Source: Anthostomella pinea (Eukaryota; Ascomycota; Sordariomycetes; Xylariales; Xylariaceae). Taken from it: a DNA stretch of 64,000 bases. The DNA lies in NCBI GenBank assembly GCA_963556695.1, contig CAUWAG010000018.1, positions 4,836,001 to 4,900,000 of the forward strand, in the 5' to 3' direction. This document shows, in pieces, positions 23,636-58,795 of this stretch. Under the pieces are notes generated by a model that was given only the letters and a program-made list of their open reading frames with translations, was not told the DNA's origin and ran no database searches. Each line of letters starts with the position of its first letter. Position 1 is the stretch's first letter. Made by a program: the position numbers and the translations under genes.

Positions 23636-24454
23636 ATGGCGCCCGACACTGGCGTAGTACGGCGGTCAAACCGGGCGAGACAGCCGACTGCAAAGAAGCT
23701 CGCCCAGACCCAATGTGCAGCAGAAGTTGCGAAAGCCGAACAGGAAACCATCCCGCTGTCCCAACTCTCGATGGCATCGCTCCGCGACCAGTTTCGGATC
23801 GCGGTGCACAAGTACGATACTGCCGAGAAACGCTTCATTGGCCTTAACTGTACGAAACGGGCCACTCTGGAGAAAAGCCAGGAGAACCATAGGGAATGGC
23901 AGGAGCTGCGAGTGAAGGTCGACGAACTCCGCGAAGAGCTGCGGGTCCGTCGTCAACGTAAACGCGATGCGACACGAATGGCCAATATCAGCCACGGGAT
24001 CCTGCGCGAGGACTTGTCCCCGCGTCGTGGGCCTGCGGAGATTGGTGTAGAGCATCATGTCGAGCCTTCGTTTCCCGTCGAGCCTTCGTCTCCCGTCGAG
24101 CCTTCGTCTCCCGTCGATACTGCGTCTCCCGTCGATACTGGTGTCCCGTCGACACTTGTTTCGGCTCCTCCCAATCTGGTGACATATCGCAATATCAACA
24201 CAGGCGCCATATTTCGATTCGTTCCCGACGAAAGAGGGCATTTGTCACTGATGTCGCAGTGGTTCATTGGCACTCATCGTCTACGTCGCGAACCTGAATC
24301 GCCCACCTCGCCTCAACTTTGTCCTCCGAATCCCGGTGGTCAGTCCGAAGAATCGGCATATCTGTCATTAATTGCGTCTGTATCGAAGCCAGTTTCTCCC
24401 GGGTCGTCCTGCCAGCCTCCTTCCACCCATAGTACGCCGCAAGCTTGCCAATAG
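23636..24454 (+). CDS. coiled-coil hypothetical protein
   Basis: Unrecognised 272-aa frame. A basic N-terminus (RRSNRARQPTAKK) is followed by a helical, charged coiled coil (about residues 45-125, VDELREELRVRRQRKRD). A proline-rich linker is built from repeated PSSPVE units (about residues 142-165), and a short globular segment contains LVTYRNINTGAIFRFVPDERG. The last 191 bp overlap the 3' end of the CYTH gene on the other strand; an unrecognised intron near 24330 could end it earlier. The architecture (coiled coil, repeats, small C-terminal domain) loosely parallels the protein at 9025-10263, without evident homology. Function unknown. Confidence 0.55.
   Translation: MAPDTGVVRRSNRARQPTAKKLAQTQCAAEVAKAEQETIPLSQLSMASLRDQFRIAVHKYDTAEKRFIGLNCTKRATLEKSQENHREWQELRVKVDELREELRVRRQRKRDATRMANISHGILREDLSPRRGPAEIGVEHHVEPSFPVEPSSPVEPSSPVDTASPVDTGVPSTLVSAPPNLVTYRNINTGAIFRFVPDERGHLSLMSQWFIGTHRLRREPESPTSPQLCPPNPGGQSEESAYLSLIASVSKPVSPGSSCQPPSTHSTPQACQ
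24059..24150 (+). repeat. short tandem repeats in coding sequence
   Basis: 18-bp units around CCTTCGTCTCCCGTCGAG, then variants with GTCGATACTG, each keeping frame and encoding a PSSPVE/TASPVD linker. Confidence 0.85.
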
Positions 24455-25367
24455 GCAACGGACTCGTCTCGAACAATTCCGCATGCGCCAGCATGAACGC
24501 CTCCAGCTCCTCCATTCTCCGCGTCGCGATCTCCTTCCTGTACACCTTATGTTCCTCGGCATCCATCCCCTCCGTCACGACGGGCTGGAAGAGTTCAACC
24601 TCACCGACGGAATGACCAAAAGCAGGAGGATCTTCGCATATGCCATCCACATCCTCGCTGCTGGTCTCGACGACCTCGACCTCAGCCTCGCTGACCGCAT
24701 CAACCACAATCGTCATCTTCGCCACAGGCGCCGTCCCGTCCGCCAGCTTTATCACGTCCCACGACGCCCGCCGCGTCACTAGGTCCGCGACAACCCCTAA
24801 GTCCCTTAGCGTCGTCCCCGTCCCGGCGACGACGCGCAGCACCTCCCGCACGACGCTCTTCCTGCCGTCGATCTCGATAAACTGCGAGTTAACGAAGTCG
24901 CCATCGCCGACGCGGAGCTTGGCGTTCCATTCTACCTTGCCGTTATCGTCTTCGCCCGCAACAATCTCGCGACCTTTGTATTTCTCTTTCTCTTCTGCTC
25001 GCGCGACGTTGCCCGGAGGCAGGATGATGCGGGAGTGGCGTTGTCGTACCCATAGGCCCAGCTTGCTGAGGTGGCCGTCCTTGGTGTCGTAGTACGTGTC
25101 GCGGATGAGCTCGGACGGCTGGCCTCGCACGGTCAAGGCGCCTTGACTTCCCCGTTGGCCGGGTGTGAAGGATGCGCGGGTCTGGGCTCGCGTTTGGGCT
25201 CGTAGACGCGATGCGAACTTCGGACCCGGGTTGAACTTGCGCTCGACCTCGACATTGGAGACTATGCGCTTGAGTGGTAGAGAGGCGGGTTTAGATGCCG
25301 TCGGTGTCCTCATTGCGGGATTGCTCGGATGCGTTGGAGGAAGTTGCAGCACGGAAAACATGCACAT
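24264..25367 (-). CDS. CYTH-domain protein (thiamine-triphosphatase-like)
   Basis: Single exon, 367 aa. CYTH proteins are triphosphate tunnel metalloenzymes that bind and hydrolyse triphosphorylated substrates with a divalent metal. The signature ExExK is present as EVERKF (about residue 42), followed by alternating strands including RDTYYDTKDGHLSKLGLWVRQR, VEWNAKLRVGD and KMTIVVD with a regular charged pattern, as in thiamine-triphosphatases. The start may be at 25367 or at an internal ATG at 25313. It lies 140 bp downstream of the viperin-like gene on the same strand. Thiamine triphosphate is the usual annotation for fungal members, but a nucleotide or polyphosphate substrate cannot be excluded. 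Confidence 0.85.
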   Translation of the reverse strand: MCMFSVLQLPPTHPSNPAMRTPTASKPASLPLKRIVSNVEVERKFNPGPKFASRLRAQTRAQTRASFTPGQRGSQGALTVRGQPSELIRDTYYDTKDGHLSKLGLWVRQRHSRIILPPGNVARAEEKEKYKGREIVAGEDDNGKVEWNAKLRVGDGDFVNSQFIEIDGRKSVVREVLRVVAGTGTTLRDLGVVADLVTRRASWDVIKLADGTAPVAKMTIVVDAVSEAEVEVVETSSEDVDGICEDPPAFGHSVGEVELFQPVVTEGMDAEEHKVYRKEIATRRMEELEAFMLAHAELFETSPLPIGKLAAYYGWKEAGRTTREKLASIQTQLMTDMPILRTDHRDSEDKVEARWAIQVRDVDDECQ

Positions 25368-25507: not shown

Positions 25508-26568
25508 CTACCAATCCAACGACTCCTTGCCCGCAGGTCCGCAGCCGCCCTCTGCATCCCCGTCTCCATCTCCAAGAACCTCATCTGCATCCTTCGTCCA
25601 GTCGTACACGCCTCCACGCTCACCAAACGCCTTCTTATCCCAGCGCACCTCGCTCAGCGCCGTCTCCACCCCGACCTCCAAGATCGACCGCGACTGCTTC
25701 TCGACGCCGCCGCCCTTATCCAGAAAGCAGAAGAACTCATCAACCAGCAGGTAGCTCGCGGCCATGACCGAGTTCGGCTCGGGCACGATGCACGCGAGCT
25801 CCTTGTGCCTATCGCAGAAGGCCTCGAACTGCGCGTCCGAGATGAGCAGCTTCTTCGCGTTGCGCTTCCGCTTGCTCATGCGCAGGTCCTTCTCGTCGGC
25901 GTCGTTCTTGCCCTCGACGTACAGCACCTGAAACGCCTTCCAGCGGAACGGGTCGAGCCGGCGCACCGTGTCGACCATGTCCTCGTGCCAGTTGTGCGTG
26001 CACACGACCGTGTTGAGCTAAAACTTGATGCCGGCCTCGCGGCACCAAGCGCGGACCCGGAAAAGCTGCGCCACGTTGTCGCCCGTGCCGCGGCCGATAG
26101 CCGTGTTGGTCGCCTCGTCGAAGCTGTCGCAGCTCACGCCCAGCATGTCGACCCAGCGGCCATGCTTCTCGATCCAGCTGCGCGTCACCTTGGTGCCGTT
26201 GGTGATGATGCTGACGCTCTCGAGGCCGAGGTCCTCCTTGTAGAAGCGGCAGAGCATCGCCAGCTTGTCCGGGTAGAGGAACGGCTCGCCGCCGGCGAAG
26301 TTTATCTTGAGCATGCCGGCTTCTTTGAGCAGGCGCAGTCCGCGCTTCATGTCGTGCTCGGGGCGACGTAGGAGGTCTTCTCGGTGTGGAAGCAGAAGGC
26401 GCACTCTTTGTTGCATTTTCGCGTGAAGAAGTAGTTGACAGAGACCGGCTTGACGCCATTGTCGTCGCGATGCTTCCGGTAGATAGAGTAAGCTCCCATG
26501 CCGATGGCAACGGCACCTAAGACCGCTGCCACTAGGGTCCAGCTCCAGGGAATGAGATCTATCAGCAT
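25508..26568 (-). pseudogene. viperin (RSAD2) homologue, frameshift plus nonsense codon
   Basis: Radical SAM enzyme family that dehydrates CTP or UTP to 3'-deoxy-3',4'-didehydro nucleotides, which terminate viral RNA synthesis. Encoded in one exon equivalent to about 353 residues; human viperin has 361. An N-terminal hydrophobic helix ([19 protein letters not shown]) serves as membrane anchor. The 4Fe-4S motif is CNKECAFC (residues 52-59), then KINFAGGEPF, SIITNGT, DMLGVSCDSFDE and IGRG, all viperin-diagnostic. The C-terminus keeps SRSILEVGVETAL, ERGGVYDW and ends in LDW, but contains an acidic/Gly-rich insertion. Two lesions: a one-base loss in a run at 26360-26363 after EKTSYVAP, and a TAG codon at 26018-26020 (about residue 184) between GIKF and LNTVV. 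Conserved residues flank both, so an intron is unlikely. Confidence 0.88.
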
Positions 26569-27185
26569 GGTTGATGATGTCCCGACCTGCTGTCCTTTCG
26601 TCCTGAAAGGTTGGGGGTCAAAGAGACGAGATGGATGGTTTTTCTAAGCTGGGGGAGTCCGGTGCCTTATAGCCGTGGGCCATACCCACGGGCCACCGCA
26701 GCAAACGGGAATGCAGAATGAGTCCTCAACAAACACCAAAGAAAACACAGAAACGGTTCTGGTTGCCTCGATTAGTCAAACTCTGTGGTAAACCAAGGAG
26801 GTTGCTAGCATAGTTAGCATACAAACCACGCAGATAAGTAATACCATGGGCGGTGGGGCGGCACGATTTTTCTGCCCGAAGAAGCGACTAACCCGCCCCC
26901 GCCCACGTTGCTAGGAAGGCCCGTTTGAGCAAACGGTCACTGGGGAAACCCTCACCGGATACCTCTGCCTTGTCACTCTCGTACGGCAATCACCAGGTTG
27001 GGGATTCTGCCTACAGGACGGATATAGCCAGAGCCCACCTTTCCTACAGCTCTATAGCTGGGGACATTTCACTCTGATCTGTGGTCTTGCATGATCTTTC
27101 ATCCCGCAGGGGTTATCACGACCAGCTGCCATCACAGAATCTTCCTCCACCTCTTGACTACTTGGGCGCCCTGCAGATCCCTACC
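26569..27185. promoter_or_regulatory. bidirectional promoter between viperin and kinase genes
   Basis: 617 bp between the two divergent start codons. It contains a perfect 7-bp inverted repeat CCGTGGG / CCCACGG with 5-bp spacer (26673-26691), a short direct repeat TAGCATA (two copies near 26808-26821) and a GC-rich CCCGCCCCCGCCCAC tract near 26890. No TATA box stands out. Confidence 0.6.
26673..26691. repeat. inverted repeat in the viperin/kinase promoter
   Basis: CCGTGGG, five bases, then CCCACGG: a perfect dyad about 105 bp before the viperin ATG. It could be a dimeric regulator site or a hairpin in the viperin 5' leader. Confidence 0.6.
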
Positions 27186-27970
27186 ATGGTATGCAAGACA
27201 GAAAGCAACACCCCGCCAAGCGGCTGCACCATCATCTTCGTCCTCGGCCCCCAGGCAGCGGCAAGGGCACACTCTGCAAGCGCATCACCGAGACGCCCGA
27301 CCTGTCCAGCCACGGCTTCCGCCACCTCTCAGTCGGGGACTGCCTGCGCGAGCTTGCCGGGCTCGAGGCGCTCTGCGAAGCCCAGAGCTTCGACCACGAG
27401 AGAATCCTGGAGAGCGTGACGAAGAACAAGCTGCTTCCCTCCGAGGTGCTCATCCCCGTGCTCGAGCACAAGATCGCCTCGACGACGCCGAGCGGCGATA
27501 GCGGTGCTACTGCGTGGCTGATCGATGGGTTTCCGCGCAGCCTTGAGACTGCGTTGACGTTCGAGGAGAAGGTAGGTTGACGTCTTGGGCATCAGCATTG
27601 CTGGGATTCCGAAGACTCTGAATGTTACTGATGTATCATCTACTTCAGATCGGCCGGCCGGTGAGGATCGTGACTCTCGAGTGTGCGCGCGAAAATGCGC
27701 GCAGTCGGTTCCTGAATCGCGGTAGGGAGAAGGCCGACGATCGCGAACGCTTTGATAGGCGGTTCGATGAGTACGTCGTGAACATGGAGGCCATTCGTGA
27801 GCACTACGGAGGCATCACCGATGCGGTGCGTATTCCCCCCTTACGTGCTGCTGCTATTTTTGCCATTCCTGTTCCTGACTGAGTGTACGTAGATTAGCGT
27901 GGATGGAACCCGTGAGGAATGCTTCGAAGAGTTCGTGCATTTGTTGACGGCGAAGCCAAAGGACGGCTAG
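27186..27970 (+). pseudogene. UMP/CMP-kinase-like nucleotide kinase, frameshift at P-loop
   Basis: Phosphorylates nucleoside monophosphates with ATP. Exons 27186..27571, 27649..27825, 27893..27970; introns 77 and 67 nt. The N-terminus (MVCKTESNTPP...CTIIFVLG) is in one frame; the P-loop PPGSGKGTLCKR and the rest are in another. The C run at 27248-27252 has five bases where six would restore frame and the GPPGSGKGT loop; adding one base makes the model exactly divisible by three (about 214 aa). Further motifs: RHLSVGDCLREL (NMP binding), DGFPRSLETA, and a short LID RGREKADDRERFDRRFDEY, which is the UMP/CMP-kinase type rather than the long adenylate-kinase LID. An alternative start at 27191 stays in the second frame but loses the first beta strand. 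It diverges from viperin. Confidence 0.8.
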
Positions 27971-55465: not shown

Positions 55466-56422
55466 GTTGACGAGATAGAAGGGCGCAGATGGATGCTAAC
55501 TGACGCTCAGTGAATGAGTGGAAGGAAAGAAAAGGAAAGAAAAGAAAAGAGAGAATGAGTAATAGAAGAGGATGAGTGTGAGTCAGGTCTAGGAGGATAC
55601 GATTCGTATTCGTACCTACCTACTCAGGATCGCATCGTGAAAGAGTATGAGTGGGAGTCGGGGTTTAGCAAAATACGATTCGTATTCGTACTTGGTACCC
55701 GCCCAGACTAATAATATTTGAACGTGGCTAACCTCCGGTTAGCCCAGGTCTTATATTCGCAAAATTCTTAATCGATTCGCGAATTCTGACAGAGGTATGG
55801 ACAGTTGTGCTGGCATAAGGATCTGTTTGGAAATGAGCTGTAACATGGTTGTGGATCCCAGTTCAGGGGCTAACTGGAAAACACACCTGCAGGCAGCTGC
55901 CAGTGCAGCCAGGTACCCCCCGGCACGTGCTGTGATCTAGCCCGAGTTGAGAGGGGGATCTTCTTGGCATTCTCTCGGGGACCTTCTAAGGTTAGTTATG
56001 TACCTAGTGACTTCAACGTCCTAGGATGGGCTTCATTGAATTGAGGACAGTTCAGGAGGGAGGAGGCACATGCAACCAATACAATTACACTTTACATAAT
56101 CAGACTTCAGTCGGTTGAGGCTGAGTCCATTGAGGCCTCATTTGTTGCGTCACCGGGCCACCTGCCAAGCATTCCCGTCCAGAGCTCATTGCCCCTCCTC
56201 TTCCAATCAGATTACCCCGCCATCAGCCCTCAGCCATCATCACGGTCAGCCATTTGTGTATTTGACCAGCCAACATCATCACCTACAATCACCCCTACCC
56301 GCAGCAATATCTGCATCACATCACCGTGGAAAACTAGCTTGAGGGGCTATCCGACGACGACTCTCTGCTTCGCAATAACCCACAGTCATTTCCACCGCGC
56401 GCTCGTCGCTGACAGCTTCGGC
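55466..56422. other. 957-bp divergent intergenic region
   Basis: Promoters of the wax-synthase-like (minus) and HET-C (plus) genes, holding the direct repeat at 55573-55693. Confidence 0.55.
55573..55693. repeat. duplicated 45-bp promoter element
   Basis: ATACGATTCGTATTCGTAC occurs at 55597-55615 and again at 55673-55691, 76 bp apart. The preceding bases (TGAGTGTGAGTC / TGAGTGGGAGTC) also match, so about 45 bp are duplicated, 110-230 bp upstream of the wax-synthase-like gene. Confidence 0.75.
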
Positions 56423-58795
56423 ATGGCTTTCCCCGCGCTCGGTTTCGGCAGCACGTTGCTGATGCTGGGACTCGTGCTGGTCCTGATGCCCACCAAGGTA
56501 GCTGCTTTCGGTGCTGGCAACATTCCCTCCATCGCCCAGGTCGAGGGCACCAACTGGCGCCACGGCGACATCGAGGACATGCTCAAGACCCTCGCCTTCC
56601 TGCACGGCAAGAAGTGGTCCACGCTGATGGTCCAGCGCACTTATTTCGGCAACTGGCTCCGCGACTATTCCCAGGCTGTCGATGTTGGCAGTTTAAAGGG
56701 CGTCAACGCTGCCACCATCCGCGTCCTGGTCTGGGTCCTGTCCTTCCTCGCCAATGGATATGCCACCGAGGAGTTTGAGGTTACCGAAGAGCGCCTCGGA
56801 GTCTACCGTCCCGAGGAGCACATTGACAACCCTCTGGGCTACGCCGACGGCAAGGATGCCAGAACCTTCGATCCGCGGCTCAGAGGGCCTGTCATGCCCG
56901 TCGAGACCGAGATTGACCCCAACACTGGCATGAAGAACTACATCGCCAATGAACACGGCAACTGGGCGACTAGCGCAGGCTACCTCCGATTCAGCCTGGG
57001 ACGCAGCATTCACTTTGGCAGACTCTACACCCACGGCTCCCAGGGCAGTGGCAAGGAGGAGGATCTCTGCGAAGCTTTGAGGTGTCTCGGCCAGTCGCTC
57101 CACTGCATGGAGGATTTCAGTGCTCACAGCAATTACTGCGAGCTAGCACTGCGCGAACTTGGCTACCACGGTGTCTTCCCTCATTGCGGAACTGGCTCCG
57201 AGATCAACCTCCGCGGCCGCCGCGTATACCCTCTCGTAACGGGCACCTTCGGTGGAGTTGACTTTCTACATTCCGTTTTGGGCGAAGCCAACGACCACTT
57301 CACCCAGTCCGAGGTAGACGAGCTAGACATTGCCCTGAAGAACGCGGAGAAGAGTAGCAGCAGCGGCGGTGGTGGTAGTCGAGGATTTGGATTTGGCGGT
57401 AGTGGTGGCACAGACTTCATCGGGCTCGTCAGCAAGCTGCCCGGCATTGGAGGCGGCATGGCTTCAGAAGCGGCGGACCTCAAACGCATGGCAGCGGACC
57501 AGGAACGACAGAACGAGCAGAGTGGTGCCTACTCTGGCGCACGTGGAAATACTAACTTTGTGCCAGGTATGAGTGAGAATTTTGACCCTGTCAAGGTCTC
57601 AAGACAGATCTATCCTATCCTGCAGTTCCGGGACAAAATCGTCAAGTCCATCAACAGAGGCATTGCAAAAATCCCAGGTCTGGAGAGCTTGCTCGAACAT
57701 ATTAGCGAGACGTTGACGGCATTTGTCCTGGGTTTGCTGGCCCCTTTCATTAGGCCAATCATCGACGCCGTCACCAAGGCTCTGAAGGAGGGTTCATCTG
57801 AAGTGATCAATTCCAGCGCGAATTCGCAACTGGAACCGTGGAAGAACCCCCACTGCACCGATCCAACGCACTCAATGCTCTCCAAGGATCACTTTACGAA
57901 TGTCCTTAACTCTTGTGCCGGAAGAGTTGCATCGACCGTTCTCCAATACGCTGTACCGTAGGTCGAAAAGCCTGAGGCCTCTAGATCTCGCGCTAACTAC
58001 ATTCGCAGACGAGTCTTGTATGCTTGGGACAACCCTAGTGTGCCAGTGGATGAGGTGGTTAATGACCTTCTCCGTGCCTTCCATCACCCTGCTATCCGGG
58101 ACGAGCACGTCGAGATTCAGAAGAGCATGTTCAACACGGTACGCCAGTGGGCTGACGAGTACCCGCGCCGTCATGAGATCAACCATATTCTGGGTTCGGA
58201 GTCAGTCAAAAATGGAAAGAACCACCCGACCGCAGGTCAGGGCGACCGCCAAGTGCATTCCCATGGCGGTGGTATCTTTGACGGCGGGATGCTTGAGCAA
58301 CTGGGTCACGGTAGACCGAAGGGCTCGTTATGGTCACAGTGTGCCACACGGGACATGGACGCCATGGGTGCTGGCTCGGGTGCTCAGCCAGGGTCAAATT
58401 ATTCGAGCCGCCCGAGCTCATCCCACATACCTCAGCCGCACCAGGGCGGCTACGGATACCATCAGCATCAGCAGCCACCCCAAGGCGGTGATGGGCACCT
58501 TGCACCGTATTCTGGCTACGGCGGCCAGCCACCTGCGCAATATGAGGCAGGTAGTCAGGGCGGATATCAACAGTACCCACAACAGGGATACGGCGGATCA
58601 CCTGCTCCTCAAGGCGAGGGGGCTGGCTACTATGGCTCGGCACAGCAACAACCACAGCAGGGATACCCGGGTCAGGGCCAAGGCTACTACGGAGGTCCGC
58701 CGCCCCCTCATCAGCCGCAGTATCAGGGAGGCTACCCGCCGTATGGAGGACAGCAAGGAGGTGGGTATGGAAACCCGCCGTACCCGTCATACTAG
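56423..58795 (+). CDS. het-c: HET-C heterokaryon incompatibility protein homologue
   Basis: Secreted or plasma-membrane protein of the Het-C family; in Neurospora different het-c alleles trigger incompatibility after hyphal fusion. Exons 56423..57957 and 58009..58795, 773 aa; the 51-nt intron has GTAGGT, CGCTAAC and CGCAG. A signal peptide (STLLMLGLVLVLMPTKVAA) is followed directly by FGAGNIPSIAQVEGTNWRHGD, the conserved family start. HCMEDFSAHSNYCELALREL and YPLVTGTFGGVDFLHS are further conserved blocks. A Gly/Ser-rich stretch lies near residue 315. The C-terminal 150 residues are rich in Gly, Gln, Tyr and Pro. The upstream in-frame codons before 56423 are leader sequence. Confidence 0.93.

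What the first reader, a model, noticed from the sequence alone, without database searches (positions are those of the whole stretch)
25508..27970. Divergent viperin and UMP/CMP-kinase-like gene pair in a fungus
Viperin-diagnostic motifs ([31 protein letters not shown]-terminal LDW) lie beside a kinase with a short UMP/CMP-type LID, sharing one 617-bp promoter. Established: viperin makes ddhCTP or ddhUTP, vertebrate RSAD2 adjoins the nucleotide kinase gene CMPK2, and many prokaryotic viperins sit near nucleotide kinases. Inference: this is a fungal antiviral nucleotide module in which the kinase feeds pyrimidine nucleotide to viperin. Shared arrangement across kingdoms would be striking.
Basis: partly seen in the sequence, partly recalled or inferred. 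Interest (0 to 1): 0.9.

Follow-up and report, generated by a model that had tools for sequence, protein, structure and literature searches.

The report
Fungal viperin paired with nucleotide kinase
In many ascomycete fungi the gene for viperin, an enzyme that makes chain-terminating antiviral nucleotides, lies close to a gene for an unusual nucleotide kinase, a partnership like the one in vertebrates and bacteria but built with a different kind of kinase; the copy read here appears broken.

Summary
The pair is real. The window is Anthostomella pinea (Xylariales). A viperin gene (25508-26568, minus) and an ADK-superfamily nucleotide kinase gene (27186-27970, plus, three exons) are divergent, with 617 bp between their start codons. 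Both carry frame breaks in this nanopore-only assembly: viperin one frameshift and one in-frame TAG, the kinase one frameshift before its P-loop. The arrangement is not a local accident: of 46 species names present in both my kinase and viperin tables, 41 have the two on one contig (about 1 expected by chance), and 7 of 9 pairs with tags in both names have neighbouring tags. The kinase is not a UMP/CMP kinase proper: it falls in a separate clade, has altered base-pocket residues, and lacks the TSGR LID motif (0 of 101 family members, 8 of 9 references). Nor is it of the thymidylate-kinase family found beside bacterial viperins here, the family I recall for vertebrate CMPK2. So viperin and a nucleotide kinase appear to have been joined independently in fungi. 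Most likely the kinase supplies or recycles the pyrimidine nucleotide used by viperin; substrate and antiviral role are inferred. A CYTH triphosphatase gene next to viperin may be a third member (weak evidence).

The parts
25508..26568 (-). Viperin (radical-SAM ddhNTP synthase) gene: N-terminal hydrophobic stretch, CxxxCxxC, C-terminal LDW; broken by one frameshift near 26360 and an in-frame TAG at 26018-26020
26018..26020 (-). in-frame TAG within the viperin gene
26347..26374 (-). stretch in which the viperin reading frame changes, at a run of C on the coding strand
26569..27185 (.). 617-bp intergenic region shared by the two divergent genes; no direct or inverted repeats of 10 bases or more (seed 8) found
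27186..27571 (+). kinase exon 1 (P-loop PGSGKGT, SVGD, DGFPRS); frame change at a run of C just before the P-loop
27649..27825 (+). kinase exon 2 (short LID RFLNRGREKADD)
   Evidence: junctions agree with public protein P0001
27893..27970 (+). kinase exon 3 and stop
24264..25367 (-). CYTH-domain (thiamine-triphosphatase-like, VEVERKF) gene beside viperin, open frame of 367 codons, only CYTH match found in the genome; possible third member

Best explanation
The locus is one copy, damaged in this assembly, of a conserved fungal two-gene module: a viperin that dehydrates a nucleoside triphosphate to its 3'-deoxy-3',4'-didehydro form, and a dedicated nucleoside monophosphate kinase from its own branch of the adenylate/UMP-CMP kinase superfamily. 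Shown here: family identity of both genes, their divergent layout in the window, conservation of the linkage across Xylariales, Apiospora and three fungi that I recall as Dothideomycetes, and the kinase's separate clade. Inferred: the kinase phosphorylates the pyrimidine monophosphate that, after one more phosphorylation, becomes viperin's substrate, so that UTP or CTP is supplied where and when viperin is made; the product terminates viral RNA synthesis. Neither catalysis, nor base preference, nor induction by mycoviruses was tested.
For: Viperin pieces match TIGR04278 and the viperin structures 6b4c and 7n7i. 41 of 46 species names in both tables have kinase and viperin on one contig, about 1 expected at an assumed 45 Mb genome. 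7 of 9 pairs with tags in both names have neighbouring tags; one pair lies on a 4,460-base contig. Mirror-tree correlation 0.82 over 44 pairs against at most 0.37 in 500 permutations, though shared species history gives this too. The intact kinase P0003 folds as an NMP kinase (pLDDT 91.2). P-loop G and K are invariant in 67 members; the Arg of GD..R and of DGFPR is kept in 45 of 45 linked members. Three other ADK-family genes can cover routine NMP phosphorylation, which argues for a dedicated job.
Against: The position I recall as reading the base is T in 32 of 45 viperin-linked kinases, not N or Q as in the 9 references, so a UMP/CMP substrate cannot be read off the sequence. Five of 46 species names have the two genes on different contigs; Hypoxylon sp. 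FL0890 has them on contigs of 834,990 and 350,708 bases. 32 of 74 named viperins had no listed kinase on their contig, including all ten from Mycena and Favolaschia, although both lists were cut at 120 (of 1550 viperins and 5145 kinases). For Dothistroma, Zasmidium and Polychaeton only a shared contig of 0.5 to 2.8 Mb is shown, not adjacency. Orientation was seen only in the window. The window copy carries three lesions.
Confidence: 0.55

Rival explanations
1. The kinase acts downstream: it re-phosphorylates ddh-nucleoside monophosphate released from terminated RNA, keeping the chain terminator in its active pool.
For: Altered base-pocket residue and shortened LID suit an unusual substrate; the genome already has an ordinary-looking UMP/CMP kinase (best PDB match yeast uridylate kinase).
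Against: No biochemical data; an ordinary UMP/CMP kinase might accept ddhCMP too.
Confidence: 0.25
2. Linkage is inherited micro-synteny without functional meaning: the two genes merely stayed neighbours.
For: Closely related Xylariales dominate the sample; beyond them only shared contigs are shown in most cases.
Against: Linkage is also seen outside Xylariales (Dothistroma, Zasmidium, Polychaeton) and on a 4,460-base contig whose kinase is sister to that of Dothistroma, although these four kinases are only 30-39% identical to P0003.
Confidence: 0.15
3. The three lesions are assembly errors and the A. pinea pair is intact in the cell.
For: Nanopore-only assembly polished with Racon and Medaka (PMC10763133, passages); both frame changes lie at runs of C; no relaxed constraint elsewhere: 2 odd residues in 134 conserved viperin columns (rank 31 of 105 sequences), 1 in 45 for the kinase (rank 28 of 62).
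Against: Four long conserved frames of 1585-1743 codons elsewhere are unbroken, so errors are not common genome-wide; the TAG looks like a substitution, not an indel.
Confidence: 0.5
4. The pair is a recently inactivated module in A. pinea, lost together.
For: Both partners are broken while the neighbouring CYTH frame is open; long frames elsewhere are unbroken.
Against: No sign of relaxed constraint; homopolymer context of both frame changes.
Confidence: 0.45

Closest known systems
Vertebrate RSAD2 (viperin) - CMPK2 pair
   Same: Viperin beside, and inverted with respect to, a nucleotide kinase gene (stated for the human genome in PMC10058120, passage).
   Different: CMPK2 is of the thymidylate-kinase family (recalled); the fungal kinase is ADK family (PF00406), and P0003 scores 18 bits against the PF02223 cut-off of 27.
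Prokaryotic viperins with neighbouring kinases
   Same: Viperin gene next to a small P-loop kinase; PMC11249213 states that 15% of bacterial viperin genes lie next to a CMPK2-like kinase (passage).
   Different: Of 75 prokaryotic loci with viperin relatives, 12 have a P-loop ORF within 600 bases. Eight of these look thymidylate-kinase-like; the 7 scanned all matched PF02223 above its cut-off. The fungal kinase profile found nothing in 6406 ORFs of the 75 loci; a broader kinase profile gave 4 weak matches of 18-20 bits, three of them these thymidylate-like neighbours.
Fungal viperins/SANDs of Thielavia terrestris and Trichoderma virens
   Same: Same enzyme family; the T. terrestris enzyme dehydrates CTP and UTP (PMC9642334, passage); window pieces match PDB 6b4c and 7n7i, which I recall as T. 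virens.
   Different: No kinase partner is mentioned in the passages seen.
Eukaryotic UMP/CMP kinase (URA6, CMPK1)
   Same: Fold, P-loop, GD..R and DGFPR; best NCBIfam model of the four members scanned.
   Different: Separate clade, SVGD instead of SAGD, mostly T instead of N/Q at the base position, LID without TSGR.

Membership tests
Viperin (radical-SAM nucleotide dehydratase) | CxxxCxxC cluster motif and match to viperin profile | tested here: met
   CNKECAFC in the window; TIGR04278 best hit of all three pieces; intact relative P0051 exceeds the NF038283 cut-off, 245 against 180, though not the TIGR04278 cut-off of 450 (339.7)
Viperin (radical-SAM nucleotide dehydratase) | open reading frame | tested here: not met
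   frameshift and TAG in this assembly
Viperin (radical-SAM nucleotide dehydratase) | makes ddhNTP | not testable with these tools
   needs anaerobic enzyme assay
ADK-superfamily NMP kinase (PF00406) | Pfam ADK above gathering score | tested here: met
   window exon 1 52.2 bits, P0003 73.8 bits, cut-off 26.8
UMP/CMP kinase (TIGR01359) | score above curated cut-off | tested here: not met
   99.1, 93.3, 73.1 and 89.1 bits for P0003, P0010, P0025, P0036; cut-off 207.6
UMP/CMP kinase (TIGR01359) | groups with UMP/CMP kinases in a tree | tested here: not met
   tree rooted on the A. pinea AK3-like kinase: 8 other references form one clade (support 0.815), 100 family members another (0.706)
UMP/CMP kinase (TIGR01359) | LID with TSGR-type motif | tested here: not met
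   0 of 101 family members, 8 of 9 references; five members keep a partial GR or DR
UMP/CMP kinase (TIGR01359) | phosphorylates UMP and CMP | not testable with these tools
   no assay
Housekeeping adenylate kinase | groups with AK1-type kinases | tested here: not met
   same tree and supports
CMPK2 / thymidylate kinase (PF02223) | Pfam Thymidylate_kin above gathering score | tested here: not met
   P0003 18 bits against 27
Viperin-kinase gene pair | linkage conserved between species | tested here: met
Viperin-kinase gene pair | divergent orientation conserved | not testable with these tools
   no fungal DNA other than the window's genome was available

The most novel reading that the evidence does not exclude
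Fungi run a three-gene ddh-nucleotide system: viperin makes the chain terminator, a private kinase with a remodelled base pocket keeps ddh-monophosphate or its precursor phosphorylated, and the neighbouring CYTH triphosphatase removes excess ddhNTP. Basis: CYTH lies next to viperin here, is the only CYTH match found in the genome, and in Emydomyces testavorans a public gene model joins a kinase of this family to a CYTH domain.
Probability: 0.13. Interest if true: 0.85.

Novelty: new variant of a known kind. Interest (0 to 1): 0.62.

Why it matters
Viperin beside a nucleotide kinase is known from bacteria and vertebrates, where the kinases are of the thymidylate-kinase type. A conserved fungal pair with a kinase of another family would mean that the partnership arose more than once, which is indirect evidence that viperin profits from a nucleotide kinase of its own. 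It gives fungi, whose viperins have known chemistry but for which the passages I saw show no tested biological role, a second gene to test, and a kinase whose substrate is open.

Full report
What is there. The window lies in Anthostomella pinea: the best kinase hit is an A. pinea protein on a contig of 5,428,629 bases, the length of contig C14 that holds the window. The published A. pinea F5 assembly gives that number as its N50 and 8,924,063 as its largest contig, which is the length of C2 here (PMC10763133, passages); it lists 19 contigs and 53,727,737 bases where the genome held here has 16 and 53,736,082. On the minus strand, 26568 to 25508, three pieces match viperin, and the middle piece matches the solved viperins. 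On the plus strand, 27186 to 27970, a three-exon gene encodes an ADK-superfamily kinase. 617 bases separate the start codons.

Damage. Viperin changes frame once, near 26360, and has an in-frame TAG at 26018-26020; no other viperin was found in the genome. The kinase changes frame just before its P-loop; the public gene model starts in another frame, at a later ATG (P0001). Both frame changes lie at runs of C and the assembly is nanopore only, which suggests error. Against that, four conserved genes elsewhere have unbroken frames of 1585 to 1743 codons, though those frames may not cover whole genes; a further control did not complete. Apart from the breaks both genes look constrained: 2 of 134 conserved viperin columns and 1 of 45 kinase columns depart. 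Recent inactivation and assembly error remain about equally likely.

Is the pair conserved? No fungal DNA beyond this genome could be fetched, so I used the contig length printed for each protein as a fingerprint. Of 50 kinases of the first search, 23 share a contig length with one of 120 listed viperins; with the profile search added, 47 of 121, and whenever both members are named the species agree. By species name, 46 occur in both tables and 41 of them have a shared contig, against about 1 expected if contig length over an assumed 45 Mb gave the chance. The five exceptions are Apiospora arundinis, Hypoxylon sp. FL0890, Jackrogersella minutella, Meristemomyces frigidus and Ustulina deusta; some may be different isolates under one name. 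Seven pairs have neighbouring tags (NUW58_g802/803, O1611_g450/451, E0Z10_g4920/4921, RRF57_012443/012444, ANO14919_043260/043270, PG986_000199/000200, ABKA04_005871/005872), out of nine pairs with tags in both names; the other two (Dothistroma, Zasmidium) carry DRAFT numbers that are not neighbours and that I recall are not positional. One pair shares a contig of only 4,460 bases, and its kinase is sister to that of Dothistroma. Dothistroma, Zasmidium and Polychaeton, which I recall as Dothideomycetes, share only the contig (0.5 to 2.8 Mb). Of 74 named viperins, 32 had no listed kinase on their contig, including all ten of Mycena and Favolaschia, but both lists were cut at 120 and each hit stands for a cluster at 90% identity.

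What the kinase is. Four members scanned score best against the UMP/CMP kinase subfamily but far below its cut-off. In a tree with nine references (yeast, human and Dictyostelium UMP/CMP kinases, AK1-type kinases, two A. pinea housekeeping kinases and two metagenome UMP/CMP kinases), rooted on the AK3-like one, 100 family members stand apart from a clade of the 8 other references; supports are moderate (0.706 and 0.815). At the SxGD position 42 of 45 viperin-linked kinases have V, where references have A, T or S; at the fourth residue after DGFPR 32 of 45 have T and 7 S, where references have N or Q. The TSGR-type LID motif is in 8 of 9 references and 0 of 101 family members; five members keep a partial GR or DR. 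That these positions read the base is recalled from work on UMP/CMP and adenylate kinases. The AlphaFold model of P0003 (pLDDT 91.2) is an NMP kinase but cannot tell adenylate from uridylate kinase.

Comparison with known pairs. Among 75 prokaryotic loci with viperin relatives, 12 have a P-loop ORF within 600 bases; eight of these look thymidylate-kinase-like, and the seven scanned all matched PF02223. The fungal kinase profile found nothing in these loci. [quoted passage not shown] The fungal kinase is of another family, so this looks like an independent joining of viperin with a nucleotide kinase.

How it most likely works. A Thielavia terrestris viperin dehydrates CTP and UTP (PMC9642334, passage). 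The genome has its own ordinary-looking UMP/CMP kinase, so a second, remodelled kinase linked to viperin is best explained by a dedicated job: local supply of pyrimidine nucleotide, or recycling of ddh-monophosphate. The antiviral role is by family; no call tested it.

A possible third gene. A CYTH gene (24264-25367) adjoins viperin and is the only CYTH match found in the genome. In Emydomyces testavorans a public gene model joins a kinase of this family with a CYTH domain (P0210), and the two CYTH parts match at 4e-14, 26% identity, in a pairwise comparison. One joined model is weak evidence, and no CYTH was found near prokaryotic viperins.

Noticed in passing
window 24264-25367 and P0210 (Emydomyces testavorans): CYTH triphosphatase gene beside viperin here, and kinase plus CYTH in one public gene model: possible wider conserved neighbourhood.
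   Followed up: partly
P0104, P0105, P0107, P0112-P0114, P0117, P0125, P0139, P0146: Mycena and Favolaschia (Basidiomycota, recalled) viperins are 64-72% identical to this ascomycete viperin, against 60-65% for nine from fungi I recall as Dothideomycetes, and form one clade of 10 (support 0.98; its placement is unsupported, 0.217): possible horizontal transfer.
   Followed up: partly
P0015 and P0095 (record named Lasiodiplodia mahajangana): The kinase of this record groups with Nemania kinases and its viperin lies among Xylariales viperins; the record may be mislabelled.
   Followed up: no
window 56189-57961: Het-C heterokaryon incompatibility gene (Pfam 828 bits), about 28 kb from the pair.
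   Followed up: no
window 23636-24454 against 24264-25367: An open frame on the plus strand with a short serine-proline-valine repeat overlaps the end of the CYTH frame on the other strand.
   Followed up: no
L092 (G000:C7:2909900-2910196): The genome's thymidylate kinase match contains one in-frame TAA; intron or damage not resolved.
   Followed up: no
   Followed up: no
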